Assembly: GCA_943736015.1 (NCBI GenBank)
Contig: OX031061.1
Span: 56,240,192 to 56,304,191, forward strand
Reading direction: 5' to 3'
Origin: Tridacna crocea
Lineage: Eukaryota > Mollusca > Bivalvia > Cardiida > Cardiidae
DNA length: 64,000 bases
The translations under genes and the position numbers were made by a program. Each line of letters begins with the position of its first letter. Positions within the stretch are counted from its first letter, which is position 1. Under the pieces are notes generated by a model. It was not told the DNA's origin. It searched no databases and worked only from the letters and a program-made list of their open reading frames with translations. Below are positions 1 to 64,000 of this stretch, one piece after another.

Positions 1-1060
1 CAGACTGGAGATGACAAAGTTATGCTCTGGATTAAGAACTATTATAAAGAACTTTCTAATTAAAGGGCAAATAACTCCAGTTGTTTGCGTCCGATTACAC
101 CCATAATTAGACTCATCCAAGACCTTATGGTTATATATATTTTGGCCAAGTTTACAGCTGATTGGTTAAAAATTGTAGATGCTAGAGAGTAAACAAAGTG
201 CAGTATAGCAATTTTTCTAATTCAGGGGCAAATAACTCCAGTCCTTCTGTTCAGATTAATCTTATGGTCTTATATATTTTTATCAAGTTTGGTGCTGATT
301 GGTAGATATTTGTAGATGCTAGAGTGTAAACAAAGTGAAATACAACAATTTTTCTAATTCAAGGGCAAATAACTCCAGATGTTCTGATCCGATTAGACCC
401 TTCGAACTAATCCGAGATCTTATGGTCATATATACTTTGACCAAGTTTTGTGCTGATTGGTTGATATTTGTAGATGCTAGAGTGTAAACAAAGTGAAATA
501 CAGCAATTTTTCTAATTCAAGGGCAAATACGTCCAGATGTTCTGGTCCGATCAGACCCAAAATCAAACTCATCCGAGATCTTATGGTCATATATACTTTG
601 ACCAAGTTTGGTGCTGATTGGTTGATATTTGTAGATGCTAGAGTGTAAACAAAGTGAAATACAGCAATTTTTCTAATTCAAGGGCAAATAACTCCAGATG
701 TTCTGGTCCGATTAGACCCAAAATTGAACTCATCCGAGATCTTATGGTCATATATACTTCGACCAAGTTTTGTGTTGATTGGTTAATATTTGTAGATGTT
801 AGAGTGTAAACAAAGTGAAATACAGCAATTTTTCTAAGTCAAAGCCAAATAACTCCAGATGTTCTGGTCCGATAAGACCCAAAATCGATCTCATCCGAGA
901 TCTAATGGTCATATATACTTTGACCAAGTTTGGTCCTGATTGGTTGATATTTGTAGATGCTAGAGTGTAAACAAGAAAATGTGAACGGACGGACGGACGA
1001 CGGCGGACGGTGAGTAATCACAATAGCTCACTCTGAGCACTTCGTGCTCAGGTGATCTAA
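1..1060 (+). mobile_element. HINE/pearl-like element with 161-bp tandem core
   Basis: About six direct units, period 158-161 bp in four successive intervals (TGTAGATGCTAGAG recurs at 311, 469, 630, 791, 952; an earlier unit is shortened). The core is followed by a GGACGGACGG-type microsatellite and a 3' end with the hairpin GAGCACTTCGTGCTC and terminal CTAA. This order (core repeats, tetranucleotide tract, 3' hairpin, CTRR-like end) is that of bivalve pearl elements / Helitron-associated HINEs. The 5' end is off the window. Confidence 0.75.
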
Positions 1061-1496
1061 AAATGAGACAGCAATTATCATCACTAGTGCTTGGAAATAT
1101 GCTGACAAAGCAAGAGATTCATGCTAGTGACTCTCTAGATTGAAGCCCTTGGAATTACAGACAATATCTCCATGATCAGCACCCGTGCAAAGATAAAATA
1201 TATACTGCAGGACAACTATACTCTCATTTAAAAAAAGAAAGCTTTGCTGATTGATTGAATGATGTTCTACACTGCACAATATTATTTCAAATAAAGCTGA
1301 AAACTTATTAGTACATCAAATCCCATAAAATTACTTCAGGGGACAGTCAGATTTAATTTGCAGTAAATATAATTCACTTTATTAAGAGTGAACTTTGTTA
1401 TATTTTCTGAATCAAGAATGGATACACTTACATGCAGTATAATATTTAATACCTTGGCAAATATTTCTGTAGTTAAATACATGTAGTAAAAATTGC
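1061..1496. other. AT-rich stretch, nothing recognised
   Basis: No exon of POLE, no open frame of note and no repeat signature that I can name. Confidence 0.5.
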
Positions 1497-1693
1497 AGCA
1501 GGGTCATGAAAATCGCATATGCACAACTTCATATAAAAGTATAAAGGAACCCTGTGTGTAAATTTGAGTTCAGTATGTGAAAAACTGTAGGAGTATTGCT
1601 CTGGACAAAATTTTGTCTACAGACCGACAGACTGATGCACAGTCATGGCGATTCAAGTATACCCCCCTCCACTATGTTGTGGGAGGTACAAAA
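1497..1693 (+). mobile_element. pearl-like element, second 3'-end type (fragment)
   Basis: Has CAGACCGACAGACTGATG (ACNG microsatellite) then AGTATACCCCCCTCC and a complementary GGGAGG, the same 3' architecture as the elements ending near 6495 and 8758. Short and diverged. Confidence 0.55.
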
Positions 1694-2186
1694 ATGATTT
1701 AGTTATCAATTCCAAAGATACTCTAACACAATTTACCTAATCAGACTGAAACTCCCTGAACCAATGATCCTTAGAGTATCATTGTAATGGGTACCGGTTT
1801 CGGGTACTGCAAGACATGCTATGTAAATCTGATGGTGTATTTCCACAAACGGTACCGAAAATACTCAAGTACAGTCACACTTTTTGGTTCATACTACTTT
1901 AGTTCAAATAAAGAACTCTGGTCCCTTGTGCTACGAACTAACAAAATTGTTCTGTAATGACTCCTTTTCAATTTTCAAGTGGTACGTTAATTCTATACTG
2001 TGCTGTGGTAATTATCCATCAATAACAAAATCACTTCAATAACAAAATCGCGTCTTTGGACACATGTAACAAATTACACAAGTTAGCACAAGGCCTAGAA
2101 ATTGATTCCACTTCATACAAACCGGAACTTTGCAGCATCAGAGTTTGCTACAAACATGTTTTACTGTATCTGTAAACATTTAGTTG
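1694..2186. other. no gene recognised
   Basis: Contains two near-palindromic GGTACCG motifs (about 1791 and 1852) but no coding or repeat signal I can support. Confidence 0.4.
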
Positions 2187-2260
2187 CCTGCATTTTCTCC
2201 TTTTCTCACAATATTTCCAAAAGCCTTTTTTAAACCCTACATTGTTTGGTAAAGGATTAA
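2187..2260 (-). mobile_element. hairpin MITE fragment
   Basis: Right half only: GCATTTTCTCCTTTTCTCAC through to AAAGGATTAA. Confidence 0.6.
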
Positions 2261-2380
2261 ACAAATACCTGTTTCCTGTTTGACTGAGGTATGGGTCTCG
2301 ACAGAGGTCTAAATCTCGTATATGATTGCACTGTTTACATATTACCTGTAAACAGAAGAACTACATTCATCTTCCTATGA

Positions 2381-2800
2381 CTCTTTAAAGGTGGCCCTTC
2401 AGATTTTGGGACGAAAATTTTACAAAAGTGCAAAAAAATCATCCTTATACTCCAAAGCCTTTTAATTTTCATTCATAAAAACTCAGTAATCGAAAACCGT
2501 CAGACAACACGAGAAATTAGAGATTTACTACGGCCCAGGTTGACACTAACGGGAGACTCATTCTATTTTTAGATGATCAATTCGCTCATTTACTTACAGG
2601 AATACACAGAAGAAGCTTCAAACATAGCGTCCGAAGAAGACATTGTGGAAAATAATTATTACATGTTTGTTATGATAGTGAATTTAAGCGTTATGAGTCA
2701 CGTGCCAGTCACTTGACATTCCCACAATGCTTTATTGATTTTTGGAGCGAAATCTAAAAATAGCTTAAGAGGCTACGTAGCCTTTTAAGGGAATACCATC
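2381..2800. repeat. unclassified repeat-like block
   Basis: Starts AAAGGTGGCCCTTCAG and ends AGGCTACGTAGCCTTTTAAGG, a short palindrome. The ends hint at a diverged MITE but I see no clear inverted termini or target duplication. Confidence 0.3.
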
Positions 2801-2831
2801 AAAAAAAATTTTTTTTGTAATTTTATGAATC

Positions 2832-3060
2832 TTAACTCATTACCACACGAGAAAATTTTTGACTGGTCCTAATTGAAAGCATTTGCAGACGACAAAATTA
2901 AGGTGACTGAAAAATAGAAATTTGTTCTGTGAAGGGTAGAAAACACTGTGGGAAAAGGAGAAAATGCTGGTTACCAGCATTTTCTCCTTTTCCCACAGTG
3001 TTTTCAAGAGGCTTCTTTCTCAGGGGCGTCAAAAGTAGGGATTGAGTGGTAATGGGTTAA
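2832..3060 (-). mobile_element. TTAA hairpin MITE, subfamily A (reference copy)
   Basis: Bounded by TTAA at both ends. Left end (in its own orientation) is TTAACCCATTACCACACAAT, right end is GTCGTTTGGTAAAGAGTTAA in typical copies. The centre is a perfect palindrome of ~66 bp: each arm is GAAAACACTGTGGG, then AAAAGGAGAAAATGCTGG. The outer halves are not palindromic, so orientation can be read. About 229 bp, no ORF. TTAA target plus ends beginning CC(C/A)TT suggest piggyBac-type mobilisation (inference). Confidence 0.85.
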
Positions 3061-3602
3061 TTATTGATGATTTGTATTATTTTTTCATATGAATTTCAGT
3101 GATATACATATATTTTAATTTGGTGAGATGTAAAAATTCTACATACCCACCTTTAATACCAGAGACACATTTGTTGCAGTTGGAATTGTTAACTTATTTA
3201 TTAACAATCTATATAGAACACATACTCTGTTTAAGAAATAATCTTCTATCATGGTTTATCTTTCAATAAACCACATTTGTGAGTTATGAGACACAAAAAT
3301 AGCCTGAGTGATTTATTCATTGAGCTTCACAACTCACAACATGATTTATTGAATGATAAACTATAATAGAAAGAAGATTATTCTGATTCTAACATGATCA
3401 ACTCTAATCAAAGGAAAACAAGTTTATACTTGGAGTAATAACACACATGCAGATTATATCCCATTGAATAACTTGCTTTATGAAGACTAACGTCACTGTA
3501 TACAGAATATCGTCACTCTACACAGAATAACATAGATTTTACCCAGCTTTCATTGCGCTGTGTTTATAGAGCCGCATTCATGTGTCATATTAGAATTAAC
3601 TA

Positions 3603-3832
3603 TTAACCCTTTACCCCATAAGGCATTTCTATCGTATCTCTAATTGACCCTAAATAGCAGCAAGGATAAAACAGTTTCTTATGTGTATATGACACCTTTT
3701 GATAGCATGGAAAACATTGCAACAAAAGGTGAAATTGCTCCTCATGAGCAATTTCACTTTTAGCACACAACGTTTTCCAAAGACTCCTACAAGCAATACA
3801 TAAAAATGAGTATCTATGGAGTAAAGGGTTAG
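3603..3832 (+). mobile_element. hairpin MITE, subfamily B
   Basis: Starts TTAACCCTTTACCCCATAAG; central palindrome has arms ending GGTGAAATTGCTC. Right end has decayed to TTAG. Confidence 0.8.
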
Positions 3833-3839
3833 CCATACA

Positions 3840-4033
3840 TTCCAAATTTTCAATGAGCAAGAGGAAATTGCTTTTTGAAAACCTTATCAGAAAAATTGAA
3901 AATGCTAGTAACCAGCATTTTCTCCTTTTTCGCAATGTTTTTTAGCTTTCAAGCTTTGAGACACATTTTGTTGTCTGCAACTGCTTTCAATTTAGTAAAA
4001 TCCCAAAATTTTGTCAATCTTGTAAAGAGTTAA
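3840..4033 (+). mobile_element. hairpin MITE, degenerate A copy
   Basis: AAAATGCTAGTAACCAGCAT centre and AAAGAGTTAA right end; left end lost against the adjoining B copy. Confidence 0.65.
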
Positions 4034-4086
4034 AACAAGTAGATAGGAGAAATGCATGCAACTCAAAAGGTTTCATCGCAGCTGCT

Positions 4087-4457
4087 TTAACTTTTTACCA
4101 AAGGACTAAATTTTAACCCATTACCACACAATCCCTACTTTTGACGCCCCTGAGAAAGAAGCCTTTTGAAAACACTGGGGGAAAAGGAGAAAATGCTGGT
4201 AACCAGCATTTTCTCCTTTTCCCAAAGTGTTTTCTACCATTCCTAGAACAAATTTCATTATTTCAGTCACCTTTATAATGTCGTGTGCAAATGCTTTCAA
4301 TTTGGACCGGTCTAAAATTTTCTCGTGTGGTAAGAGTTAAACAGGTCCAAATGGAGGGCACTTGCAGACGAAAAAATAAACATAAATCAAAAATTGAAAT
4401 TTCTTTCTGGCAGGGTATAAAACATTGTGGGAAAAGGAGAATATGCTGGTTACTGGT
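4087..4457 (-). mobile_element. hairpin MITE interrupted by another MITE
   Basis: Outer copy begins TTAACTTTTTACCAAAGG, is cut at an internal TTAA by the copy at 4113-4340, resumes ACAGGTCCAAATGGAGGGC and stops after the first hairpin arm near 4457. Confidence 0.7.
4113..4340 (+). mobile_element. hairpin MITE A, nested in another copy
   Basis: Complete, TTAA to TTAA, intact central palindrome; younger than the MITE it sits in. Confidence 0.85.
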
Positions 4458-4631
4458 TCAATGTTAATTGAAAAAGGACGTAACTATGTCTTGTTGATGG
4501 TTGCCTGTCCCTGTTGTATATGTTTGCCTTTTGGTAGTTAACAATTATTATTTGACCATTTTTCTGAGATACGTGATTGATTGTATAGAGTTTAAAGGTG
4601 TATTGAATATTATTTGAGGTGCCATTACACC

Positions 4632-4865
4632 TATCCATGCTTTCCTGGAGTCTTTTTTTTAACCAGTACTCCGCATAATTTTCTTCCTAAGCCACTAGCT
4701 GCTTTCACATAAATATCAATAAAACAATAGTCTGTGATGAAAGAGCAGTGAATCCTCTTGCAATGACGATCATCAATCCTCAGAAAGAAATTTGCCAAGC
4801 CAGGGATTGAACCCGGAATCCCCTGTTCTGAAATACAGTATGACACCAACTGAACTTCCAGATCT
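4632..4865 (-). mobile_element. tRNA-derived SINE
   Basis: Minus strand shows a box-A-like AGTTCAGTTGGTG and box-B-like GGGTTCAATCCCTGG about 40 nt apart, then ~190 nt of body ending GAGTACTGGTT and CCAGGAAAGCATGG. The ending resembles GTACTGGTGTAAAAAAGCC and CCAGGAAAAACATG of the SINE at 28921, so both share a 3' domain. Not a tRNA gene: no cloverleaf is kept. Confidence 0.7.
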
Positions 4866-4943
4866 CCCTCTTTTCTGTGAAAACTTTAAAGCCAAAAAGG
4901 AATGAAAACAATATGACCTTAAAGAAAAAGAACCATATCTCAC

Positions 4944-5214
4944 CTCTGGCAATACGTAGGACAGGCATGGATCTTTAAACACTGCTTCCGTGGAAAATTC
5001 TCCAACCCCAATTAACTTTAATAAGTCTCTCTGTAGTTTGGTGACCTGTATACCAATGTTTGAGTCCAGAGACAGGACCTTACACACACTTTTTACAAAC
5101 TCTAAAGCTGGGTTATTCAAAGGGAGATGTGAACCTGGGGGAGTTGGAAATTCTTCTGACAAGTTATTGTTGCTGCGGTTACCACTAAGTTTTTTGTGAA
5201 TTTTTTGAGTCAGC
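4944..5214 (-). CDS. POLE: POLE exon w33 (last visible)
   Basis: 271 bp, phase 2 to 0. Encodes [56 protein letters not shown] and [10 protein letters not shown]. In human the next residues, VICRSCNFCRDLDLC, begin the first zinc-binding motif; no matching exon is found between 1 and 4943, so the C-terminal exons lie further left. Confidence 0.95.
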
Positions 5215-17200: not shown

Positions 17201-20200
17201 GGGTTCAAATTTAACGGTCGCAAACTCGCAAAATGCGAGCTGAAATGAAAAAATGCGAGTGCCAAATTCTAACGGTCGAAATAATTTGCGAGTGCGCCGG
17301 AAAATGGGCAAACCTACCGCTTAAAAATCTGAATTAATCTATAAATGTGGTCGTTTTTTCGTGTACACTGTATTGCCTTATGCGGTGTAGAACTATCCTT
17401 TGAGAGTATCGCCGACCACGTGACATTCATAGAGACGCTTGTTGCGATATTATAAATACATGTATCCGATATTTAAAGCACGTAGACGATTCTGACGTTG
17501 TTTTTTCGTCTGTCTGCATTACCTCGCTGAAAGTATGCACAGGAATCGGACGTTTATTTGGTGAAAATAGCTAAATGTCAGCCGAAGTGGTCACTCTCTA
17601 TTATAAAATTTCATAATAGAGAGTGACTACTTTGGCTGACATTTAGCTATTTTCACCAAATAAACGTCCGATTCCTGTGGAGTATGGAGCGAAAAATATC
17701 TAGAGTTTTTTCGGCAAAATGCCATATTCTGTGACATTGCCAGAATACACAGACCCCCAAACGATAAAACTGTCTAAGCCCACTGTCGAATGTGTAGAGT
17801 CTGAGCTATAATATTAGCCGTATTCGACGGGTAATCACGGTTTTTCATGTTGCACTCTTTGTATTCAAATTGTAAATTTCATGATTTCGTAAACTTTTGG
17901 GAAGCACAAACCTTGCGCTCTCAAATCGACGTAATGTAATGTGAAGCACGAAAAAGGCACCTTATAGGTAGGCGGAGCTTATAACATTGTAGGAAAAGGA
18001 GAAATAGGCTCATCAATGTTTTCGTAAGTTTCCCATTTTAGAGTAGTTAAAACAGGGGACTGAGTGGCAATTGGTTAAAGTATTGCTAGTACAAAATTGA
18101 GTTTTGCGAGTAGAAAAAATGGTCACTAGCAAATTTTTGCTAGTTGATAAAAAAGTTAAATTTGACCCCTGTGATAGTCAACTTCCTGTAAAAGGACCAG
18201 AGTGATTTATGATATATGGTTGTTAGACATGTTACAGATCATGTGATGTCATGTGATCTTGGTATGATGCATCACAGAGAAGCATTAAGTCCCCATCAAC
18301 CAGAGCATAGCTCATGCATACGAGCCATGCTCTGGCAAATGGAGGCTTAATGCCTCTCGTGATTTTTGATACCAAGTAAGGTATTGCACACTAACCGGTC
18401 CATAATGCCCAAGTCTTTTTAACAACCAACTTAATAAGGCCCAAGAAAAAAATATCTGTGTTTAGGGTTTCAGTCCAAGATACACAGGCAGGGTAGGTAG
18501 AGATTTATTTCCAATCATGGCGAAAAAAGTTTAGGGTCGGCAGCATTTTCTAGGCAGGGTAGGAAAACCCGAACCACATATTTTTTTGAGGCCTTATGAG
18601 AGAGTACGGCCCTTGGACTTACAGAAAACGGACCAATAGTGAAAAGTTTTTGCCCAGGTCAGCCTGTCAGAGTGCGCAAGCATGGCTCATATCTCTCTCT
18701 CTATATATATATAAAAGAGAAATGAAACTACAAAGAGTATTTTCAATGTTGAAAATACTATTTGCAGTGTCATTTCTCTTTTATTATGTATTTCCTTGTT
18801 CCGGTATTCTTCTTATTATTGTAATACAATATATTCATCTCTATCTCTCTCAAAGACAGATGTGCTACACTCACAACATACCTGAATGCTGTAGAACACA
18901 GAGCTGTTTCATCATAGCTTGTCATGATTGTAGCAGCTCCCTGTCCTTGTACCATCTCCTCTAGTGAGGACTGGGGCATGGTGTCAAAACTGACTGCACT
19001 AGCTCCTTCTTGTTCATTAACATGAGACGACTGAAATACATTGAGTATAAAAATCATTGAGGAAATTTGATAGGGTCTTCCTAATATGCTAATATGATAA
19101 AATATGCTATTGTGGCTATGTTAACCCTTTACATCGCCATCTCAGCTTAACAAGCCGGAAAGGGAAAGCCTTTATAAATCAGTATTTTCTCCTTTTCCAA
19201 CAATGTTTTCTACTTGTTCATGGAGAAACTTAAACTTTCAAGCCACATTTATTTTGTTGTCTGCAAAGTCTTTCAATTTGGACCATTCTTGGATTCTGCC
19301 ATTTGGTAAAAACCTCAAAAAGCACTTTAGAGTACCATTATAATATTCCAAATGCTGGTGGGCAAAGTATACATACCTTATGTGAAACAACTTGTCCTAC
19401 AATAAAAAATGCTGCAGTTTTTGGCTCATACCACTGTTAAGTGCAGGTATATAAAAGGTGTATTCTACAAATATCCCATGGAAAGATAAAACCTACATAA
19501 TTATTTACCTGCATTAACCTATAGTTGTCAATAGTTGGGCTTTGTTTGTTTAATGTCTTTCTTACTTTCTTATCACACACTTTATACTATTTTATACCAC
19601 TGCTTTCAAAAGTACTAAGGAAAAAGTTATCTGCAAAGACATTTTGTCATTTTGTTTTTGCACTCTCCACCAGATGACAAAATGTTAGACATGTCCAAAT
19701 CGAAAGAATTTGCGGACAACAATTCAAACTAGAGCTGTCACTGAATCTGACTTAACTCATTACCAAACAACAAAATTTTAGGTTTGTCCAAATCGAAAGC
19801 ATTTGCAGACGACAAAATAAAAGTGACTGAAAATTTGAAATTTGTTTTTTGAAGGGTAGAAAACATCGTGGGAAAAGGAGAAAATGCTGGTTACCAGCAT
19901 TTTCTCCTTTTCCCACAAAGTTTTCTAAAGGCATCTTTCTCAGGGGCGTCAAAAGTAGGGATTGTGTGGTAATGGGTTAATACCCCCGCCAGCCCTTTGA
20001 CAAAAACAGGCAATTGCTAGTATTTTGTACACAGACGGACACTCAAACCCACAGACACGCTGATTCCTGTATACCCCCGAAAACATTTGTTTTGCTGGGG
20101 TATAATGTCCCATCCTTTGCCAACAGCTAAAAACATAGTGGGGGGAAGGAAAAATGCATTTTGTCCTTTTCCAACGATGGTTTTCTTAGCAGACTTGATG

Positions 20201-35200: not shown

Positions 35201-38200
35201 CAGTTTTTTCTGCAGCCAGTCTGGATGAGCAATGCGAGGAACTGGGTTTGTCACCTGCAAAATAATGTTTCAAACATTAAAAGTGAAACCAATATCAATA
35301 TGGTAGAATTAATAAAAAATCCTTCTCACTAGTAAGTTTATTTCACTTTTACAGATCAGGGTCCGTATTTACCAACCATTCTTTGTCCTGTTCTTCAAGA
35401 TTTCCTGACTCTGAAAGTAACAGAACTTCTGATTGGCTGAACCATTTGGTCTAGCCAATCAGAAGTTCTGTTACTTTCACACCGACACAATTTTGAAAAA
35501 TAAGACTAAGAATGTGCTAAAGAATGGCTGGTAAATACAGACACTGGAACAGCTTTAATACCATCACCTGGATTTTAACCCCTTACCATATGATCCTGAG
35601 GTTTAACAAACCCAAAGGAAAAGGACTTTTTAAAACAAAGTGGGAAAGAGTAGAAAATGCTGATAACAACCATTTTCTTCTTTTCGACAAAGTTCTTTTT
35701 TACAGAGGAATTTCAGTTTCCTAGTCACATTTAATTTATTGCTTGCAGAGGCTCTCAAGTTGGAATAGTCTAAAAATTAGGTGTTTTGTAGAGTTAAAAA
35801 CAAAACACCAAATCATTGTCTAAAAGAATTAGAAGGTAAGCTGAACATAGTTTCTTTTTCTAACCCTTTACCACACAATTCCAACTTTTAACACCCCTGT
35901 GAAAGAAGCCTCTAGAAAACACTGTGGGAAAATGAGAAAATCCTGGTAACCAGCATTTTCTTCTTTTCCCACAATGTTTTCTTTCCTTCCTAAAACAAAT
36001 TTCAATTCTGTAGTCATTTATTTTGTCATCTGCAAATGATGTCCATTTGGACCAGTCTAATATTTGGTCGTTTGGTAAAGAGTTAAAGAGAGTAGTGGTC
36101 ATTGTTAAATGAAAAGCTTACACTTTGCAATGCTGCTGGGATGGTTATAATTTTCATAACACAGCCTCCGAGTCGTTCAATGTAATACTCCCAGTCAATG
36201 ATCTGTAACAAATACCACAAATATTTATAAGCCATGCTCCAGCAAAAAGGGGTTTATAATCTAGGTGATACACCAAGCATAAGGATTAACCCATTACTAC
36301 ACAATCCCGACTTTTAACGACCCTGAGAGAGAAGCCTTCTGAAAACATTGTGGGAAAAGAAGAAAATGCTGGTGACCAAAAAAAAAAAATTTCCCACATT
36401 AGACCCATAATCAAACTCATCCGAGATCTTATAGTCATACATACTTTGACCAAGTTTGGTCCTGATTGGTTGATATTTGTCGATGCCAGAGTGTAAACAA
36501 GAAAATGTGAATGGACGGATGGACGCCGACGGACGGTGAATGATCACAATAGCTCACTCTGAGCACTTCGTGCTCAGGCAAGCTAAAAACTTGCCAATGA
36601 AATATTATTTTTTCATCCAAATTTGATAAATCTCTTATTACACAAGTCTTTTTGGTAAAGCACAAACAAATACAACACATAACCAGAAATAAACTCACCT
36701 CTCTGATATCAAAATTTGAGGTCCCTGGTGCCTTAAGCCACTTTCTTAAATAGTGCTTTTTCACACTGGGCTCTGCCTCAAATATAGTCAGTGGGATAGC
36801 TCTACAAATAGAGAAAGAAAAGTTTGCTTGTTTGAATCCTGTTTTAAAGCCGAATTTAACTCATTACCAAACGACAATATTTTAGGTTTGTCCAAATCAA
36901 AAGCATTTGCAGACGACATAATAAAAGTAATTGAAAACTTGAAATTTGTTTAGTGAAGAGTAGAAAACATTGTGTTTTCAAAAGGCTTCTTTCTCAGGGT
37001 CATCAAAAGTAGGGATTGTTTGGTAATGGGTTAAACAGACATATTGTGGAGACAGCTCACATACTGGTGTACGAGGGTTGTGGTACAAGTAAAAGGACTT
37101 TCCTTGTAGCTGCTTTATTATATATATTTTTGCTTGAATATAGTTCAGCATGTCTGATCCCAAAATATGTAATCCAAATTTTATCTGGTGTACTTTGAAA
37201 TATGCAGAGTTTCCAAGGTAATGGTAAAGGTAGGTAGCCCATGCAAGTTTCAGTAACGCAAAAATAACATTTGCTTGTTCACATATTGCCTCTAATTATC
37301 CTTACGTTTTATTTTTGCGTGCAAAAGTTTGGCTGCACAATATGTGGCATTATGTCATTTCCTGCTTATTTGAGCGCCATAGCAATTCCCTTAGGCGAGA
37401 TACAGCGTTTTTCATCACGTCAAGAGCCTACAAGAAAAACATCATGTCGTCTGCAGGAGATATCAAGTTGTGGGCGGTAATCCAGTTTTGTCCAAGCCTT
37501 GATAAAACACCTTCAAAGACCTACCACCTTGTTCAGGAAGCAGGCAAGTATAAATGTTGCTGTTCATTAGTGTTCAGATGGCATAATTAGTGGATCGCAT
37601 GTCACAGGTGTGTTTGCACTGGTGGGTACTATGTGGAGAAAGTATGATAAGCGACGTCATGTTGGACCTCAGTGAATGTTAATCTGTGTGCTGGAGGGTG
37701 TTTAGCATTGTATGTATTTTAACTGTAGTTTGGTACTTAACTCTTTACCAAACGACAAAATTTTAGACTGGTCCAAATTGAAAGCATTTGCAGACGACAA
37801 AATAAAGGTGACTGAAAATTTGAAATTTGTTCTGGAAAGAGTAGAAAACATTGTGGGAAACGGAGAAAATGCTGTTTACTAGCATTTTCTCCTTTTCCTA
37901 CAGTGTTTTCAAAAGGCTTCTTTCTCAGGGGCGTCAAAAGTAGGGATTGTGTGGTGTTGGGTTAATGTGTGTTAGTTTTTTTGCTAAATATATGCTAATA
38001 ATTGTCCTTTTTCTTCTGCGACAACCCTTGTATTTCCTGGGTTTTACCAGTACTAATATAGGGCTCTGAAGTGTCTTGCCAAAAGACGCTCCTGTGAAAA
38101 GCCAAGCATCCAATTACAGAAAATTCATTTACAGAAGGGCCTATAAATTTGTATAAAAGAATCATGTCTTTCTTGACCCTTTACCACACAATCCCAACCA

Positions 38201-41200: not shown

Positions 41201-44200
41201 GGATAAGTCTAAAATTTTGTTGTTTGATAAAGAATTAGGAGTAAGGGCAGGATACATTGTTGAAAGAATTATCAGTTATCATGAAAGGAACTGTTGGTCT
41301 CTTCAGACAGGCTGGTTGCATAAAGAAGGCTGCCATTCAAGTAGATTTACTTCACTGAATATAATGCAGATAACCTCCTACCTTACTGAAAAGGACATCT
41401 AACCAGTAGTCCGCCACTTTTGCCACTGCAGCATAACATTCTTCCAGCGTCTTACCCTTCAAAAATGCTTCAAACACTGAAGACTGGAATATCTTTATCA
41501 GTTCCAACTCCCCATTTCTTTTCACTTCAAAACCCTAGAGTTGAAGAGAAAGCAAAGTCCACAGTATTGTGAAGATCTATAACAGACATTTTATCAAACA
41601 GCTTTTGCTCTGGCATCTGATGATACAGAAATGCAAATCAGTGAAAAAGATAAATAAGGAAAATTCATTCAGCTTCTTTTCAAGAAATAAGCCACCTTTT
41701 CAAATTCATGGAAAATAATGTGATCAATGTTAACTTTGTCTAACATCTCAAATATCCTGCTTACACCCTAGCAACAGAAAAACAGAAAGCATTAACCCTT
41801 TACGATATGACAAAATTCTAGATTTGCCCAAATTGAAAACTTGCAGACAACAAAATAATTGTGAATCAATAATGAAAGTACCCCTTTGGATAAGTGGAAA
41901 ACGTTACGGGAAAAGAGAAAACATTTGTTAGTAGCATTTTCTCCTTTTCCCACAATCTTTTCAAACAACTTATTCCGTCAGGTTATTGAAACTCAAGATT
42001 TTGTTGTAAAAGGTTTAATAACCATAAACTTACCTTAAGTTCTGCCAAAGAACCATCAAAGTTAAATACAGCATATCTCTTCTTCAATTTTTTACCCTCT
42101 TCTTTTGACGCTGGTAAAATCATAGCCAGATAAGGACCATCAACCTCGAAGAATATGGAGTTTTCACTTCTAACTTTGTAGGTCATTTTTGCAGGATCCA
42201 CCAACTCCTGATATTGGTCATTTGTAAAAAAGTCCTACAGGGGAAAAATGCAAAACTTTACTCAAGTATTCAAAACATCAAGCAGGTCTATTGAAATATG
42301 AAAAAAAAAAAAATTTTTTTTTTTTGACTCAAACAAATGAAAAACAATAAAATTCCTTCCAATTACAGGGATCATTCTGGTTGGACATATACATGAGAGA
42401 AAATGTTAAATTTGCTAAAAAATTATGAGAGATTTCAAATTTCAATGAGATTCTTTATGTTTCATTTTTCAGGAATCGAACTCTTCTCCAAACGATAAAT
42501 CTAAACCTCTTAAAGACACTATTTTAAAGGCGACTACTTTCTCTGAGATGAGAGAAAACAATGTTGGAAAAGGATAAACTGCTCAGATTGAGCAATTTCT
42601 CCTTTCCCCACATTGTTTTCATAAGTCTTACAACTAAAAACCAGTGTGTCAACATTTTTTCAAAATAAGCCTCGACTTCTGGCTCTGCCACACCCTCAAT
42701 GCAGATCTACATGTATAATCAGTGACGTTGAAGTGTGGTTGTACGAAAATAGTCAGTTCCAATCACAGGTGAACGGCGACAACAATATAAATCCTGTATT
42801 ACATATTAATATACTGAGTATTTGTGTGTAATATAGGATTTATATTGTCGTCGCCGTTCACCTGTGGTTCCAACGGCCATGTTATTTGTCATATTTAAAT
42901 CTCAACAATAGTCACAGTGCATTTCGTTTTTTTGAATTATCAAAGCGCAACCACCCATGTAACTTAAGCCATTTTTTGTTAAATTTGACTGTTTTTTGGG
43001 GTATCGAGGGATCTAAAGAAGTACCAGTGTCATCGTTGGACTTGGTCGGCGATTTATCATGTTTATCTGGGCTTTCAGCACTCTCATCAGTTTCGACTCG
43101 TGAGTTTGTAAGAAAACTGGTCATTGTATCACAAGATTTTATTTGGTTCGATTCTACTTTCCTCTTCTTGGGAGGCATTTTCCTTGCAAAGTGCCTGGCA
43201 CAGAACAGCAGACAACTTCAACACGAACTGCATTCGTACGCAATATCACGGTCCGCTAATGATAAGGAAAAACACCGAACAAGCCGAATGTTGCAAATGG
43301 TAATCTGCTTCACATATATCTTGTTTTACAATGCGGGAACCAGTGTATAAACTAGTTTATTGTGCGCTATGTAAGGACTGACACTCGAGTTCTATCCCTA
43401 TCATCAGCCAAAAATCGGTATGCGAGATTTTGTTTCAACTGAGATTTAGAAATGCGATTTTTGCTATTTTAATGAGAGAATCTCGCGATTTCGCGGCCCA
43501 AAATGATCCCTGCAATTAACAGTGTTTATGGATGAAACTTTGAATGATTGAAATTATCTTTAACCCTTTACCAAACAATCCCTGGTTTTTACAACCCTGA
43601 GACAGAAGCCTTTTTCTCCTTTTCCCACAATGTTTTCTACCCTTCACAAAACAAATTATAAATTTTCGGTCACTTATTTTGTCGCCTGCAAATGCTTTCG
43701 ATTTAGACAAACCTAAAATCTTGTCACTTGGTAATGAGTTAAGAGTTGGTCATGTTAGAATTGAAATAATCTTTCTATCGTGGATTATTCATCGTGCCTC
43801 ATAACTCACAACTGTGGTTTATTGAAAGATAAACCACTAGAGAAAGATGATCATTTCTTATTTATCATACAACTGAAATGACACATGCTCTAACACTCTA
43901 ACAAAAGAGGCTCAATTGCATCTCTGTTGTGCATGACACCAAGCAAGTTACCATATTTTTGAACGAATAAAATCCATTTTGTCTAATAACTGACAGAATC
44001 ATGTGATAGAATGGTCCATTAACATACAGAAAATTGACATACAACAGAAGTTTCAACCTGTGTCCACCAGCTTGTCTGTGCTGGCCAATATGAACTGAAA
44101 CTTTTTGCAGATGCATTAACTCTTTACCACACAATCCCGACTTTTCACGACCCTGTGAAAGAAAGCCTTTGAAAACATTGTGGGAAAAGGAGAAAATGCT

Positions 44201-50200: not shown

Positions 50201-53200
50201 TTGAAAATCTGTCACCACCCCTACAATCATCACCAGAGCATTGACTTTGATGAATCATCATTCTACCAATTATTTTTGGATAGATCACCCGAGGACAATT
50301 TCTTGAAGAAGACAGCACATGCTCGATATTACTAAAACATTAAGTCAAATAACAACACCATATGCAGGTGCCAACAAGTGGCTAGAAGCTTGCTATGAGC
50401 AAGTTGTACTGCAGTGAGCTAAAAAAAAAAGAAGGACTTAAAGCTGAAATGTTTCTGGAAGGTAAAAATCAAAGTCAAGGCTCTCTTCTGAGGCTGACAT
50501 ACCTTTGTTAAGCCTTTAAACTCATATCTCCTATCCCTGAAAGCCCTGACGGTGTCGACATAGAAAGAATTTTCCCTCTGACAAATCATCGCTGTCCTTT
50601 CCTCCATCTTCGTGATTTTGGTTTTCTTGTATGCTTTACGGCAGTATTCTACAATGAAAACAGCTAAATCTTAAGCAGTGTTGTGCCTAGGCCGCGGGAT
50701 TGCGGGATTCCCGCAATTTTTTTAAACAATGTCCCTTAAAATTTAAACCATTGCGGGATGTCGGGCGGGCTCACGAAAATCCGACGAATTTTCCTTATCT
50801 GGAGTCCATTTCAGTATTTACATACATTGCGTTAATTACAATGGGCACCTGCACAACGTAGACTGTGACGGCGGAATTTACTGAGATAAAGTCGCTTAGG
50901 GAAATCCGATATTTAAACCAGTCTTACTGTTGTCAATAAAACAGTATGGCGAAACGCCGGATGCGATTGACCGACTTTATGTCGGGAAAGGTTAAGAATA
51001 ATAAAGTTGCAGACGAAATTGAATTACAGAGGACTGTGAAAACCCCGAATCAATCGCGGCTTCTTCGACCTCCGGAACAAGTAAGAAAAAGGACAGAACA
51101 TTTCAGAAAAAATCTGCTCATAAAATTTCCGTCGTTACAAGAGTCGGATGGAAGTATGAAATGTGTCCCCTAGATTTTTCTAATGTCCCCTTGAAATTAA
51201 GGTAGGGGGACACCTGTGTCCCCCAAAAATTTTGGCCTAGGCACAACACTGCTTAAGCCTTATGGTAGACCTTCCTAACAACTGTTGTCTCAGGTTTGGT
51301 CGTACTCACCATTTATCCTATCTCTATTTCTGACTTAACAAGCATTCTGATAGTATTGCACAGCAATACCAAATTCCCTACGGCCGTACATATCGCTTGA
51401 AGGTACATTTTGTGAAACTTTGTGGAGGAGAATGAATGTATTTGACCCCGTTTCATAATCATAAGCAAATTGTCTTTGAATGCAATGCTTTAATGAAAGC
51501 CAGATATATAAGCCACTCATCACAACTTAGCCGATTCCGTACCAACATCTAACCTCGTCCGTGTCAAGGAGACTGCCATTTTGAAATGAAGATCACGTAA
51601 TTCTATTTATAGCACAACAATGACAGTTGTTTAGCAGCGACATAAACAACTCCCGAGTTATTCACATCTATTTATTTTTCGGTGAAAACTTCAATCAGAA
51701 TTGATAAAACACACTCAAAAATGAATGTACAAATTGTTTGTCAGCTGAAATATAACTAAGATTTTGACAGATATTGAAACTCAAGTGTTCTTTTGTAAGA
51801 GGAATCTTATATTTTTCAGAACAGTAAACCAGTGTACTTCCGGGCGATGAATGCACCGATCCGACCCATATTAATCCACTAGTTACAGCCAAGATATGTG
51901 ATGGCTCCCATCACCCAGGGTATGCCGAATGATATAGAATTTTCCTCATTAAAGCTAGTTCATTGAAGAAGTTACTCAGACAAGATGTGTTTGTGAAACA
52001 CAAATTTCTTTATTTCCATATAGTGTAAGTACCCCCCATTCACCAGAGCCTTGTTTCTTGGCAGGTTAAAATTTCGGAAACAATTTTTGAAAAGGGTCAC
52101 CCAAGGAACATCTCTGTGAAACTATTTCAAAATCTGACCAGTTGTTTCAGAGAAGAATTTTCAAGAATTTCTTTGTGTCCGTACAGTGCAAGTAGCCCCC
52201 ATTCACCAGAGCCATGTTTCTTGACGGATCAAAATTTTGCAAACAATTTTTGAAAAGGTTCACCCAAGGAACATCCCTGAGAAATTATTTTAAAATCTGG
52301 TGAGTGGTTTCGGATAAGAAGATTTTTACAAAATTCCATTTGGTTGCCATGGTAACCAGTTTTTGACAGTATCAAATTCTGTGAACAGTTTAAAGAGGAC
52401 CTCCCAAGGAACATTCTAGCCAAGTTTGGTCTAAATTGGCATGGCGGTTTAGGAGGAGTTGATGTTTAAAGAATTGTAGACGACACATGACGGACACCGG
52501 GTGATCCTATAAGCTCCCCTTGAGCACGTTTGGCTCATGTGAGCTCAAATATGCTTGTAAATATTCTTTTTCCCATAAATATATTTTCACTATCTCAAAC
52601 ATGTTACCTGCTAGTCTTTTCTTTTCAATTTCTGCCTGTTCTAGTTTTGTAAGTTCATGAAAGGCCCTAGGGGGTCCACCAGGCATAAATGGAGGAAACT
52701 TTTCATTTTCAAGCTGCTGCTGAATCCGGTGATATTCACTTCTTGATGCAGGCACTGAAATATTCAACAACAAATCAATCATGCTTTTCAGCATAGATCA
52801 CAATCATAAATCACAATTGTTCTTGTGAACATTCAAGGATACATGAATTGGCTGTATGAGCAACAAAATCTGATCTTCCATCTGCACTGTTCAAAATGTA
52901 TTTGCGACACATTCTGAATTCATGTGAGCCACACATTGTGAACCTGAGTTCAATGCATATATCTGCAAGGGCACATGGTGAAACTTTTAACTCATTACCA
53001 AACAGCAATATTTTAGACTGGTCCAAATTGAAAGCCTTTGCAGACGACAAAATAAAAGTGACTGAAAATTTGAAATTTGTTTTCTGAGGGGTAGAAAACA
53101 TTGTGGGAAAAGGAGAAAATGTTGGTTACCAGCATTTTCTTCTTTTCCCACAATGTTTTATAAAGGATTCTTTCTCAGGGGCGTCAAAAGCAGGGATTGT

Positions 53201-56200
53201 GTGGTAATGGGTTAATAAACAATACAAATGTGAATCATGAAATTTTGACAAAAACTGAAGAAGGTATTAGTAGAATTCTACAAGAAACCCCCTTTTTCCA
53301 TGATACAGTGTCAAATTGGAAAACCAAGAAAATACATTGGCCCAATATCCCAGAGATTTCATATCATATTACAAAGTTTCATTCAATTTGGTCCAGGAGT
53401 TGTGGAGAAATTGCTTTGGATGGATGGATGGAAGGACAGGTGGGGAAGCGAAACGGCGATTATTTGCTCCCCCTTTGGGAAGCATAATAACTTGGTAATT
53501 TCTAATGATTTAGATCCACTATAGTCTTGTTTAAGCATTATATTTACCCTTTCATCTATTATACTCTGTAGATATACTTACTGAGTAGAACTATTCTGGA
53601 AGTCAGTGTGATAATCAACATTAATAGGTCTAGATTTTACTCCATTTATACATATTTGACATTTAAAATCGCTGAAATACAATGACAAAAAGTTTATTCA
53701 CAAAGTTCACAATTCTATTAAGATCAAGGCATATCTTGCCAATGTTATCCGACAGGCACAAGTTAGCAAGTATTTTTGTAAATAACGTTTTTGGTTGAAG
53801 TCTCCTAACCGATACGCAAAGTTATGCACAGCTCATTTGTGGAGAGGTAATGTAACATACATATCCAATGTTCTGAAGTTACCAGATCTACATCCAATAG
53901 TGAGAGTTGCACTTTTTACTTCCTAACACACCAAACACAAATTTTTTTATTTTGGACTTCGAGCCATCGCCGAATTGTCTTCAAGGACTCCATAAAAGCA
54001 GAATCTCTCATTTTTTGTGACTGGGGTCTCCACACTGCCGTTACCACCAGAATTGCTAGAGGCATCCTGATAATTTCTGTTTTCCTGACTGGCGTTTTCC
54101 TCTTGGCAATCTTGGTGAAATAATGCAACAAAGTCGCTATTTCCCATGGTACATGTGGCTCAACAAATAAACTTCTATCGGAATTCCCACTTTAAAAATG
54201 GTATTACCCACATGGAGATATTTATTCAAGAAATAAATTATCCGAAAATTGCAATTAAGATGGCTTTGGTTCCAAGAGGGTTGGGTGACCAGTGTCAAAT
54301 CTTTTTTTTGTACTGCTAGCTCATTTAGAAGAGGTATCAATATAACCCTTTTTCCTATAAACATTGTTTTGATAATCCTGATGAAGGAAGCTATGACAAC
54401 ATTATGTGAAGAAGGAGAAAATGCTTAATATAAGCACTTTTTCCTATTCCTTCAAAATATTCTACCATTTCAAAGACATGTGCTATGATTTCAGCTGCAT
54501 TTATTTGTTACCTGCAAATATTTCAACTCCAACAAATCTACAATTTATAGTCTGGAAAGGACTGAAGACAGTGACAAAGGCAATGTGGTGGTAGGCATTG
54601 TATCAAGCCCATCAAAGCAGGCTGTGATCTGAACAATAGTAAATACAGTTCGCAGTCACTTTGATACAGTTGATAAAACTAAAATTTCCCGTAAAAATCC
54701 AGCACTCAGATCTCACCTTTCTATATACAATATAAGGCTAATGAAATACTATGATCCATGTATATTACAATAATTGGAGACATAAAATGCTCATTCATTG
54801 AAAAATTATCTCCTGCACACAATTTTTCCAAGTTTTACAGCTGATCAACAAAGAACACCGTGTTCTAACAACAATGAAATAGATTTTGAAACAAGAGGGC
54901 CATGGCTGCCCTCTATCGCCCCACTGGCTTTTTAACCCTTTACCACACAAAATTGAAGTGTTAATGACACTGAAAGAGATGGCTATCAAAAACATCCTGA
55001 GAAAAAGACATGTCAGCCAGATTTTTTTTCTTCATCCCTTTGTTTCCTAACCTAACGAAGACAGAAATAATTATTCAACTCATTACCAAACGACAAAAAT
55101 TTAGGATTGTCTAAATTGACAGCATTTGCAGACGACAAAATAAAAGTGCCTGAAAAATTGGAATTTGTCTTGTGACCCTTGTTATTGACTCAATATGATC
55201 AATTTTCTACCTTGTACAAGATATCATAAAGACAAACATTCAGAACAACTTTCAAGAGCATTGGACTGAAAATAAGGCCTCTATAGCATACACAGTTGAC
55301 CAAGTGACCTAGTTTTTGACCCGACATGACTCATTTTCTATACTCTTCCAAGATATTATCAAGATAAACATTCTGACCACATTTCAAGAGTATTGGACTG
55401 AAAAAATGGCCTCTAGAGCATACACAAGGTTTTTTTGGTTTTGTTTTGCTTTTTCCGGGATTTGATCTTGTGATCTACATACTGAACCGACCTGACCCAT
55501 TTTCGAACTTGTCTCAGATATCATCAAGACAAACATTCAGAACAGCTTTCAAGAGCATTGAAATGAAAATGTGGCCTCTAGAATGTACACAGCATTTTTC
55601 TAAGATTTGACCTGGTGACCTAGTTATTGACCTGACCTGACCATTTTCAAACTCGTGCGAGATATTATCAAGACAAATATTTCGACCAAGTTTCACGAGT
55701 AATGGACTGAAAATGTGGCCATTTGAGTATACACAAGGTAACACTTGATGAGGAATGACGGAAGGCACACAACATTCGACGCATGACGCAAGCCAGACAC
55801 AGCACGATCACAAAAGCTCACCATGAGCACTTCAAGCTCAGGTGAGCTAAAAATGAATTTAACTGAAATAGCAAATTTAGGATGTGTGCTGGATTTCATG
55901 TTGCATGTGAATGCTAATGAAAGGATACAGTTTCTAAGGTAGATCAAGGCATTTAATTGTTCCTTTGCACATTGCAGCATTCCTTCTTCCTTCTACCACT
56001 TAGTAGAAGAGACTTTTGGAATTATTTCACCTGCCTCGAGTTTTTACATATTTTTTTTGTGTCTATCTATCAAAATTTGTTGATCAGGCAGTGGTATAAT
56101 AATTATTGAAATAGCTTTAAGAAATAAATTTTAAAAGTTTTGTTATCCTTTTCCGAATAAATTTTAAAAGTTTTGTTATCCTTTTCCTAAGTACCATCTC

Positions 56201-59200
56201 CACTAGGCTAATTCATTCAAAATTACATGAAGTAAGCATAATAGAATGCTAATTTTTTTTTTTTTTTGTTAACACACTATAGTTTTATCCAATTTTAGAA
56301 TAAAAATTTTGGTCTAGATTTACCCTTTAAAACCACACTGAGTTATGTTTTACTTGCATGCTGTTGCTTGTCAGTAGAAATGCTCATCAAAGCAGGCTGT
56401 GATCCAAACGTGTAACAAGACTTGGTTCACAGTCACTTTGACAAACATCGCAATCTTATTCTGTACTGCAGCTGTTACCGTCCATTCTCCAATTTACATG
56501 TTCATCATTTATTAACGCCTCTGATCTTCGTAGTCCAGTCTGTCTATGAATGCAGTCTTTTTTCCCTTGATCAAGTCATAGCTGTTTTTGTTGTTGGTTT
56601 TTTTTTTCTCTCTAATATCCACAGCCTGTCTATCCTTCTATACAGTTACAAAAGTGGCAGAACAATGGTGCTGATAATGAGTGTCAATACAATTGTTTCT
56701 CTCTCGCTCTCTCACAATATTCATCTTAGTTACTTGACTCCTCAACTTTCAAACAATTCCACAATTTAATGATCCTGAAATAGAAGGCTTTTGAAAACAC
56801 TGTTGCAGGAGAAGAAAATACTATCAAACAAGAGGGCCATGATGGCACTGGATCGCTCACAACAGTAAAAAGGTGAAATTTCACTCCACATACATAATTC
56901 AATTTCTGACTAGTTGTCAAGTCAATTGAACTAAAAATGTGGCTTCTAGAGTGTCCACAGTTGACCTAGTAACCTATTTTATCACAAAGGGTGACCCAAT
57001 TTATGACCAATTTTTCGAGACCAACATTCTGAACAGTTTTCAAGTACATTGTGCAAAAAATGTGGCCTCTATGGTATCTACTAGGTATTTCTTTAATTTG
57101 AACTACTGACCTAGTATAGGTCTCCAGGTGACCCAAATTCAAACTCATTCGGTATTTCACCAAGACAAGCATTCTGACCAATGTTGAAGTCAGTTGTACA
57201 AGAAATGTGGCCACCAGAGTGTCCATAAAGTATTTCTTTAGTGGCGTAGATATTGACCCAAGGTGACCTAATCTTGAACTCATCTTAGATTTTATCAAGA
57301 GAAGTATTCTGACCAATTTTCAAGTCAATTGAGCATAAAATGTGGCCTCTAGAGTGCCCACAAGCTTTTAGTTTAATAGGACCTAGTGACGTAGTTTATG
57401 GCTCCAGGTGACCCAAATTCAAACTCATCCAATATTTTATCAAGACAAACATTCTGACCATTTTTCAAGTCTATTTAGGAAAAAGATGTGGACCCTAGGG
57501 TGTCCCATAGGTATTTTTTAATTTGACCTAGTGACCTAGATTATGAACCCCATGACCCAATTTTAAACTATGATTTCATCGAGAGAAACATTGTGACAAT
57601 TTTCAAGTCAACTGAGCTTGATATGTGGCTCTAGAGTGCTCGAAATGTATTTCTTGAAATTTTACCAAGTGACCTAGATTATAATCCCAGGTGACCTTAT
57701 TTTGAACTCATCTTCGATTTTATCAAGAGAAACATTCTGACCAATTTTCAAGTCATTTGAGTAAAAAATGTGGCTTTTGGGGTGCCCACAAGGTTTTTCT
57801 TAAATTTGAGGACCTAGCTTATGACCCCAGTTGACCTAAATTCACTCATGTGAGATTTCATAAAGACAAATATTCTGACAATTTTTAAGTCAACTGAGCA
57901 AGAAATGTGGCCTCTAAAGTGTCCACAAGGTATTTAACTTCACCTAGTGACCTAATTTATGACTCCGAGACACCCAATTTAAACTCATTCCATATTTAAA
58001 CAAGACAAACATTCTGACCAAATTTCAGGTCATTTGAGCCATAAATGTGGCCTCTAGAGTGCCTACAAGGTATTTCTTTAATTTGATCTAGTGACCTAGT
58101 TTATGACCCCAGATAACCCAATTTTGAACTCACTGAACATATTGTGGTCAGGTGGGCTAACAAACTTTGAACACGATTACTACATACTAAATATCACAGC
58201 TCTACACTTTCCAGTTTCAGAGAAGAAGAATTTTAAAGTTTCAACAACAATCGCCACAGCTGTTCTTTGCTTATTTATCGCGTTTAGGGTGAATTAATTA
58301 TAAAAATGTGACCCTATAACTTTTCGGGTATATTCAAGACTGGTTAGCTTGTCCAGTGGAGAGTAAACCGCAACAGAAGTAACTCTTGGTGATGTGTCGA
58401 TATCTGTAATTAGCAAATGGTCCATTGACTACTGAACATACAACCAATGTCAACTAGTTCACCATCACTGTCCTTCACTTTATAGAAAACTTTTAAGTTA
58501 AGCTCATCAAAGCAGGCTGTGATCTGATCTTTACCTACAGTTCACAGCATCTTTGACTGGCTCACCTTCAAGTACGCTGCTTGTTGTTTACCTATTTAGG
58601 ACTACTATCCTGTTCTCTTTTTATTCAAACCAGTTCCGTCTTTATGCTGTTCAGAGGAACGAAAAGATAAAGATGAGATGCAGAATCGCCATTCAGGCAT
58701 CCAGGAAAAGTTTTACTATCTCTTCAGATGGAGGTTCTCCGTGAAAAGCCCATCAAAGCAGGCTGTGATCCGACTCTATCCCAACAGTTCACAGCCTCTT
58801 TAACTGACCTCACACTGGTAAACATAGCATAGGTAAACTCATCTTAGCAAGCCAAGGTTACGATCACTACATGGATCTTACCTTGGCTGATCGAGCCCGA
58901 TTTCGAGATTCTTACTATGCGCCCTCTATTGGATGCTGGTTATATTACCCCCCTTTACATCATATTTCTGAAAGCCAATGAAGTATCGTTTTACAAACCG
59001 CTTACGAATACAATTATTCAACATGAAGCGATAAGCAGACATCCACATGGGTTTCCATGTTTACCTTCTATTGGAACGGTCGTGACCTTATTGTATTTTT
59101 ATCAAAGATGAAATGCAATGAGCAATTTCATTCCTTCCAGTTGGAGCTGGCTGCATCGAATGAAAAAGCGTATCGTGGGAATGTATAAATCAAGCTCGAT

Positions 59201-63229: not shown

Positions 63230-64000
63230 ACGCAGGGTTGATTGACATGGCTTGACAACAATGAATTAAAAGGAAAGTAATAACAACTCCCTGTATTGGA
63301 TCCTAGATATTAATTCCAATTAATTGAGTCAGTACTTAACTAATTCTCTAGCTTCAATTGATTGACCTTTGCACGAGATATTGAGCTTAGATTGGGTTTT
63401 GAGTTTGTGTTTGGAACAAAATAAAAGATTCAGTTTTGCCTAAATGCAGAGAGAGTTTGTTACTTATTAACCATTCACTGACAGTTTTCGATTCAGAACT
63501 GAGTAATGATTCAATTTCATGAATATGTTTACGATGAGCCAGGATGGCAGAGTCATCTGCATATGAAAATAACTTATGTTTAACGACAGCTGACATATCA
63601 TCAACGTAAATTAAGAAGAGATCTTCTAATATCGAAACCTGAGAAACACCACATTCAATTTTAGTCTTGGAAGAAAATGTACCAGAGATATCTACTAATT
63701 GTTGCCGGTCAGACAGGTAGGAAAAAACCAACGGACAGTCAACCAAGAAAGATTAAGGGCTTTTAGTTTCATTAAAAAAATGGACTGATTGACTGTATCA
63801 AACGCTTTCCAAAGGTCATGTAAAATCATCCCAACATAATTTCCTTCATCCATATGAAAACGAATAAAATCAGTATGGTGAATAAGACAGGTTTTGGTGG
63901 AGAATTTACTCCTGAAACCAGACTGATACTTAAATGAAAGATCTTTTGATGTAAGATAACTATTCAGTTGGCCATTAACCACTCTTTCTAAAATTTTTTA
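63230..64000 (-). mobile_element. LINE (non-LTR) reverse transcriptase, 5' cut by window
   Basis: Minus strand. YQSGFRSKFSTKTCLIHHTD and HDLWKAFDTVNQSIFLMKLK (fingers/palm with the DxxKAFDTV motif), then in another frame LSDRQQLVDISGTFSSKTK, GVSQVSILEDLFLIYVDD, and SYADDSAILAHRK with the catalytic YADD, followed by LHLGKTESFILF. Jockey/CR1-like RT common in molluscs. At least one frameshift near 63720 and loss of the usual GxPQGSxLGP residues show it is dead. The 3' part decays leftwards to about 63230. Confidence 0.85.

What the first reader, a model, noticed from the sequence alone, without database searches (positions are those of the whole stretch)
54604..58812. Four-copy miR-2 family cluster inside a POLE intron
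Seen: four minus-strand hairpins with an identical 20-nt 3' arm (GATCACAGCCTGCTTTGATG) while loops and 5' arms vary. Known: miR-2/miR-13 is a protostome family with seed AUCACAG, usually clustered and often near miR-71. Inferred: an intronic miR-2 cluster co-transcribed with POLE, tying a developmental miRNA to a replication gene. The base before the seed is G in all copies, not the usual U, which may mean a shifted 5' end or a distinct member. HINE insertions account for most of the spacing between copies b, c and d.
Basis: partly seen in the sequence, partly recalled or inferred. Interest (0 to 1): 0.88.

Follow-up and report, generated by a model that had tools for sequence, protein, structure and literature searches.

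The report
Four-copy miR-2 cluster in POLE intron
Four near-identical copies of a known invertebrate microRNA gene, miR-2, sit in one intron of a DNA-replication gene; clusters of this microRNA inside gene introns are already known, so it is probably a genuine but fairly ordinary new example in an unusual host gene.

Summary
Four minus-strand hairpins carry an identical 20-nt 3' arm (0 in 100 shuffles). All four match the Rfam mir-2 model (46.1, 45.0, 42.7, 41.2 bits; cut-off 45.5, so 1 of 4 passes). They share a stem with paired changes (7 of 24 pairs), while their flanks no longer align in 11 of 12 comparisons. They lie in sense inside one 7,150-bp POLE intron (52755-59904); the joined exons read [14 protein letters not shown] in frame. 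Best reading: a functional intronic MIR-2 cluster whose 3p arm acts through seed AUCACAG. The first-base G is probably not a shifted end: it is predicted to pair with C in all four, and oyster cgi-miR-2b-2 also starts with G and differs at one of 20 bases. Intronic mir-2 copies are already in print (six in oyster PPP4R1, one in SMC4). I recognised no POLE host in the paper listings searched. No miR-71 was found in the window. The genome-wide copy count could not be made: the genome search was unreachable in 12 of 12 attempts. Expression and co-transcription are inferred. New member of a known kind.

The parts
54603..54671 (-). mir-2 hairpin, copy a; predicted 22-nt 3p product 54629 to 54608
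   Evidence: RF00047 46.1 bits, gathering 45.5; fold z -2.8
56378..56448 (-). mir-2 hairpin, copy b; predicted 3p product 56404 to 56383
   Evidence: RF00047 41.2 bits, below gathering 45.5, E 1.8e-5 in 7 kb; fold z -3.6
58498..58564 (-). mir-2 hairpin, copy c; predicted 3p product 58524 to 58503
   Evidence: RF00047 42.7 bits, below gathering, E 7.1e-6 in 7 kb; fold z -4.4
58744..58810 (-). mir-2 hairpin, copy d; predicted 3p product 58770 to 58749
   Evidence: RF00047 45.0 bits, just below gathering, E 1.9e-6 in 7 kb; fold z -5.0
52755..59904 (-). host POLE intron, 7,150 bp, donor GTAAGT, acceptor TTTCAG; splits the codon that corresponds to residue 676 of PDB chain 7pfo_B (human POLE, organism by recall)
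   Evidence: joined exons read [14 protein letters not shown] in frame; PDB POLE matches on the two sides are contiguous
59905..60007 (-). POLE exon upstream of the intron (7pfo_B residues 642-675 and the first base of codon 676); 5' edge read from the sequence as the base after ...TTTTAG
   Evidence: phmmer to PDB POLE chains, best E 1.1e-14; sequence
52608..52754 (-). POLE exon downstream of the intron (from residue 676); 3' edge read by eye before GTAACA, approximate
   Evidence: phmmer to PDB POLE chains, best E 8.8e-18; sequence
54886..55852 (.). inserted element with diverged tandem repeats (mostly about 130-165 bp apart), between copies a and b; edges approximate, by eye
   Evidence: direct repeats D1, D2, D4; head motif CAAGAGGGCCATG; edges read
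56822..58160 (.). second inserted element of the same kind, between copies b and c; edges approximate, by eye
   Evidence: direct repeats D1-D3; head motif; edges read

Best explanation
It is a functional, intronic, four-copy MIR-2 cluster. The hairpins are transcribed in the sense direction inside the POLE pre-mRNA, cut out of the intron by Drosha and trimmed by Dicer. The 3p arm (G-AUCACAGCCUGCUUUGAUG followed by AGC or GGC) is loaded into Argonaute and represses mRNAs that carry CUGUGAU sites. The four copies add dose of one and the same product. Shown: sequence, family match, a stem with compensatory changes, constraint on the 3p arm, sense position in one POLE intron. Inferred from general microRNA knowledge: transcription, processing, 5' end at the G, loading of the 3p arm, targets. 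The confidence below is for a functional MIR-2 cluster; for transcription from the POLE promoter in particular I would say about 0.65.
For: Four exact 20-mers, none in 100 shuffles. RF00047 matches 4 of 4 copies, one above the gathering score and three at 41.2-45.0 against 45.5; of the 47 other Rfam rows at E up to 0.05 in the window none comes above 75% of its cut-off. 7 of 24 stem pairs have a change on both sides that keeps the pair, reached by 1 of 500 shuffles; 93.8% of cells pair, against 33-39% when the partner is slid by 1-3 columns. Flanks show no residual similarity in 11 of 12 copy-pair comparisons while the 20-mer is identical in all four. Base 1 G is predicted to pair with C at p 0.93-1.00 and base 2 A to be unpaired in 4 of 4. 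A model of the four finds no fifth place in 64 kb at E up to 1. Precedent: oyster intronic mir-2 cluster co-expressed with its host PPP4R1 (largest r 0.93; PMC4138081, passages).
Against: No small-RNA data. Genome-wide copy number not tested (genome search did not complete). Three of four copies fall under Rfam's gathering score. Rfam E-values do not discriminate here: palindromic repeats get equal or smaller ones (mir-549 1.4e-9 at 17565, MIR2646 5.9e-7 at 35360, mir-9457 3.8e-7 at 59548), so the case rests on the arm and seed themselves. Copy a has a C-A mismatch in the stem, the weakest fold, and an opposite strand that folds slightly better. 6 of 96 cells of the stem do not pair, five of them in the basal stem. 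The shuffles rest on 4 related sequences and on a structure derived from the same alignment. A G:C pair at base 1 may disfavour loading of the 3p strand compared with the usual 5' U (general knowledge). In oyster, strong host correlation was seen in only 21 of 76 pairs.
Confidence: 0.85

Rival explanations
1. A real miR-2 cluster, but driven by its own intronic promoter and not tied to POLE expression. (A variant of the best reading: it shares the product, not the way of transcription.)
For: In oyster, strong host-miRNA co-expression was found in only 21 of 76 pairs (PMC4138081). The intron is 7,150 bp, long enough for a promoter.
Against: Sense orientation; and the intronic mir-2 cluster with data that I saw (oyster PPP4R1) follows its host with r up to 0.93. 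No promoter was sought here.
Confidence: 0.2
2. Decayed duplicates of a miR-2 cluster elsewhere in the genome, no longer processed.
For: Three copies are below the Rfam gathering score; the host gene differs from the oyster sites; no miR-71 was found in the window.
Against: 20/20 identity of the 3p arm in four copies whose flanks have lost similarity in 11 of 12 comparisons, and pair-keeping changes in the stem. Decay would hit the arm as well.
Confidence: 0.07
3. A transposon-borne hairpin family that resembles mir-2.
For: The window is rich in palindromic repeat hairpins and tandem-repeat elements, and the genome-wide count is missing.
Against: The arm and the four-copy model match only these four places in 64 kb. 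The copies share the hairpin and no surrounding repeat.
Confidence: 0.03

Closest known systems
Oyster (Crassostrea gigas) mir-2 cluster in a PPP4R1 intron, and the single mir-2 in an SMC4 intron (PMC4138081, passages seen)
   Same: Several mir-2 copies in one intron of a protein-coding gene of the cell's basic machinery.
   Different: Host gene is POLE here, four copies instead of six. The oyster paper ties PPP4R1 to the C. elegans site (ppfr-1) as possibly ancestral; POLE is another place.
cgi-miR-2b-2 (formerly cgi-miR-2c), GAUCACAGCCAGCUUUGAUGAG (PMC4941716 Table 1, passage seen)
   Same: Same first base G, same seed, 19 of 20 bases.
   Different: A instead of U at base 11. Its genomic site is not given in the passages seen.
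Protostome mir-71/mir-2 cluster (PMC3763532, passages seen)
   Same: mir-2 family, tandem copies.
   Different: No miR-71 within 3 mismatches of the recalled 20-mer in this 64-kb window.
Rfam RF00047 mir-2
   Same: All four hairpins align over model positions 1-72.
   Different: Three copies at 91-99% of the gathering score; first base G where the model has U, and U where it has A at base 11.

Membership tests
MIR-2 microRNA family | seed AUCACAG at bases 2-8 of the 3p arm | tested here: met
   4 of 4 copies, if the product starts at the G
MIR-2 microRNA family | precursor fits the family covariance model | tested here: met
   4 of 4 match RF00047 over positions 1-72, E 9.9e-7 to 1.8e-5 in 7 kb; only 1 of 4 reaches the gathering score
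MIR-2 microRNA family | mature product on the 3' arm | tested here: inconclusive
   the 3' arm is the constrained one (20/20 against a varying 5' arm), but no reads were available
MIR-2 microRNA family | U at base 1 (usual form, not held to be defining) | tested here: not met
   G in 4 of 4; cgi-miR-2b-2 also has G
Animal microRNA in general | small-RNA reads with uniform 5' end and 2-nt overhangs | not testable with these tools
   no small-RNA data on hand
mir-71/mir-2 cluster | miR-71 beside the mir-2 copies | tested here: not met
   0 matches of the recalled miR-71 20-mer at up to 3 mismatches in the window; no mir-71 row in the Rfam scans
Intronic microRNA of POLE | sense orientation within one intron of the host gene | tested here: met
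   contiguous POLE exons on both sides, splice join in frame
Intronic microRNA of POLE | expression follows the host gene | not testable with these tools
   no expression data

The most novel reading that the evidence does not exclude
A G-starting branch of MIR-2 has left the ancestral PPP4R1 site and come to sit, and multiply, in introns of cell-proliferation genes (POLE here; SMC4 holds the lone mir-2 outside PPP4R1 in oyster), so that the dose of this miRNA follows S-phase activity.
Probability: 0.12. Interest if true: 0.6.

Novelty: new member of a known kind. Interest (0 to 1): 0.35.

Why it matters
It adds a replicative polymerase to the host genes of mir-2 and gives four paralogous hairpins in which constraint on the 3p arm and paired changes in the stem can be seen without reads. 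If co-expression with POLE were shown, an old protostome miRNA would be coupled to cell division, and host switching of an old miRNA family could be studied. Otherwise it is ordinary annotation work.

Tried and rejected
Transposon origin: not supported within 64 kb; genome-wide untested. Shifted 5' end because of the G: not favoured (oyster form). An aphid table also prints a miR-2a that starts with G (PMC3500242, passages), but miR-10a and miR-100 in that table also begin with a G where I recall another base, so I do not count it; the same doubt could touch the oyster form, since its genomic letters were not seen. miR-71 nearby: none. Exact 19-mer in the viral contig collection: none, which says little about animals. 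The exact 19-mer of this arm, in RNA or DNA letters, is in 0 held papers. Of three G-starting 15-mers one was found, in one paper, as the A form; one search found GAUCACAGCCUG in no paper. Papers naming POLE as a mir-2 host: none recognised, but I saw only listed rows (20 of 44; 15 of 308; 20 of 49; 15 of 20; 10 of 10; 10 of 11), the abbreviation POLE was not a term of those searches, and supplementary tables could not be read. Papers opened for passages that added nothing on this locus: PMC12691275, PMC7566022, PMC7773633, PMC8915122, PMC10458147, PMC9679248, PMC7488030. Seed-match sites on the minus strand in window 1-5000, where ORFs look by eye like the POLE C-terminal end (not tested): none. 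Pfam found no domain in the two exon ORFs next to the intron; the PDB comparison did. Lineage of the window ('bivalve'): not tested.

Limits of my own controls: the 200-nt 5' flank of copy c reaches into copy d's hairpin, and the 3' flank of d into copy c's, because the two are 246 bp apart; those shuffles keep base content only. My notebook entry speaks of 15 or more further places of mir-9457-like hairpins; the table shows 16 rows at 10 places, and the report uses that.

Full report
What is there. The 20-mer GATCACAGCCTGCTTTGATG occurs four times, all on the minus strand, with no fifth place at up to 3 mismatches and none in 100 shuffles. Each copy lies in the 3' arm of a hairpin. Rfam's mir-2 model RF00047 matches 4 of 4: copy a 46.1 bits (gathering 45.5), d 45.0, c 42.7, b 41.2. 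In a permissive scan of the whole window 51 rows reach E 0.05. Copy a is the one row above its gathering score; the three other mir-2 rows stand at 91-99% of it, and the 47 rows of other families at 75% or less. E-values alone would mislead: palindromic repeats elsewhere score equal or smaller ones (mir-549 1.4e-9, MIR2646 5.9e-7; mir-9457 3.8e-7).

Evidence for function without reads. Outside the hairpins the copies no longer align: 11 of 12 flank comparisons are within shuffles; one (5' flank of b and d) is reached by 4 of 200 shuffles. Yet the 20-mer is identical in all four. In the alignment of the four hairpins 24 pairs are predicted; 7 show a change on both sides that keeps the pair, five in the basal stem and two beside the loop. 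Of the pairs made by the 20-mer itself three vary: two keep pairing through a G-U form, one is lost in copy a. Shuffling the partners gives 7 such pairs in 1 of 500 trials, and sliding the partner by 1 to 3 columns drops paired cells from 93.8% to 33-39%. With four related sequences and a structure derived from them these are indications, not probabilities; 6 of 96 cells do not pair. Copies c and d are most alike (87% over 61 nt); a and b share their own 5' arm form.

The G. Base 1 is G in all four where the family model and most printed forms seen have U. In the folds it pairs with a C at p 0.99, 1.00, 1.00 and 0.93, next to an unpaired A at base 2. The oyster list of miR-2 includes GAUCACAGCCAGCUUUGAUGAG (cgi-miR-2b-2; PMC4941716 Table 1, passage seen), one base of 20 from the form here; the other six printed forms compared differ at 2 or 3.

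Host gene. The exon upstream matches POLE chains of the PDB (best E 1.1e-14; residues 642-676 of 7pfo_B, human by recall), the exon downstream matches the same chains from residue 676 (best E 8.8e-18), and the splice join GTAAGT...TTTCAG gives [14 protein letters not shown] in frame. So the four hairpins lie in one intron, 52755-59904, in sense with POLE. A POLE thumb domain further along the same strand (41352-41534, PF22634, E 1.6e-18) agrees. The other POLE exons were seen by eye only.

Spacing. Elements with diverged tandem repeats fill about 54886-55852 (a to b) and 56822-58160 (b to c); their head motif occurs 10 times in the window at up to 3 mismatches. Between c and d no such element was seen.

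How it would work. By analogy with known intronic miRNAs (general knowledge), the POLE pre-mRNA is the likely primary transcript, and Drosha and Dicer would release the 3p product. None of these steps was shown. An own promoter was not sought and remains open.

What is known. In oyster one cluster of six mir-2 lies in an intron of PPP4R1 and one mir-2 in an intron of SMC4; the authors note that C. elegans mir-2 lies in the PPP4R1 orthologue, and report host co-expression up to r 0.93 for the six, though strong correlation held in only 21 of 76 pairs overall (PMC4138081, passages). mir-2 clusters are held to have grown by duplication from a hairpin born near mir-71 (PMC3763532, passages). A four-copy intronic mir-2 cluster is therefore of a known kind. 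The POLE host, and the U at base 11 with a G start, are what I did not find in the searches named, of which the listings were seen in part.

Limits. No reads, no expression data, no genome-wide count (genome search did not complete), no synteny with other molluscs, no test of the lineage.

Noticed in passing
window 59549-59615: 33-bp perfect inverted repeat with a 1-nt loop in the same POLE intron. Rfam calls it mir-9457 far below its cut-off (46 against 90 bits), with 16 rows of that family at 10 other places of the window: probably a palindromic repeat family, not miRNAs.
   Followed up: partly
window 63387-63997, minus strand: Reverse-transcriptase fragments (PF00078, E 2.8e-4 and 1.7e-5, both below the curated cut-off), upstream of the POLE exons seen.
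   Followed up: no
window 56380-56450, plus strand: The opposite strand of copy b also gives a weak mir-2 match (22.9 bits, E 0.75); all four copies match the R1 model more weakly in antisense, as expected of a hairpin.
   Followed up: partly
window 11739, 18169, 20510, 27569, 39699, 40438, 58192: TATCACAG, the usual start of miR-2, occurs 7 times (mean 2.0 in shuffles, 0 of 100 reach 7), none at an Rfam mir-2 match. Unexplained; repeats are likely.
   Followed up: no
window 17565-17652 and 35360-35543: Two places with better Rfam E-values than mir-2 (mir-549 and MIR2646, far below their cut-offs), probably palindromic repeats.
   Followed up: no
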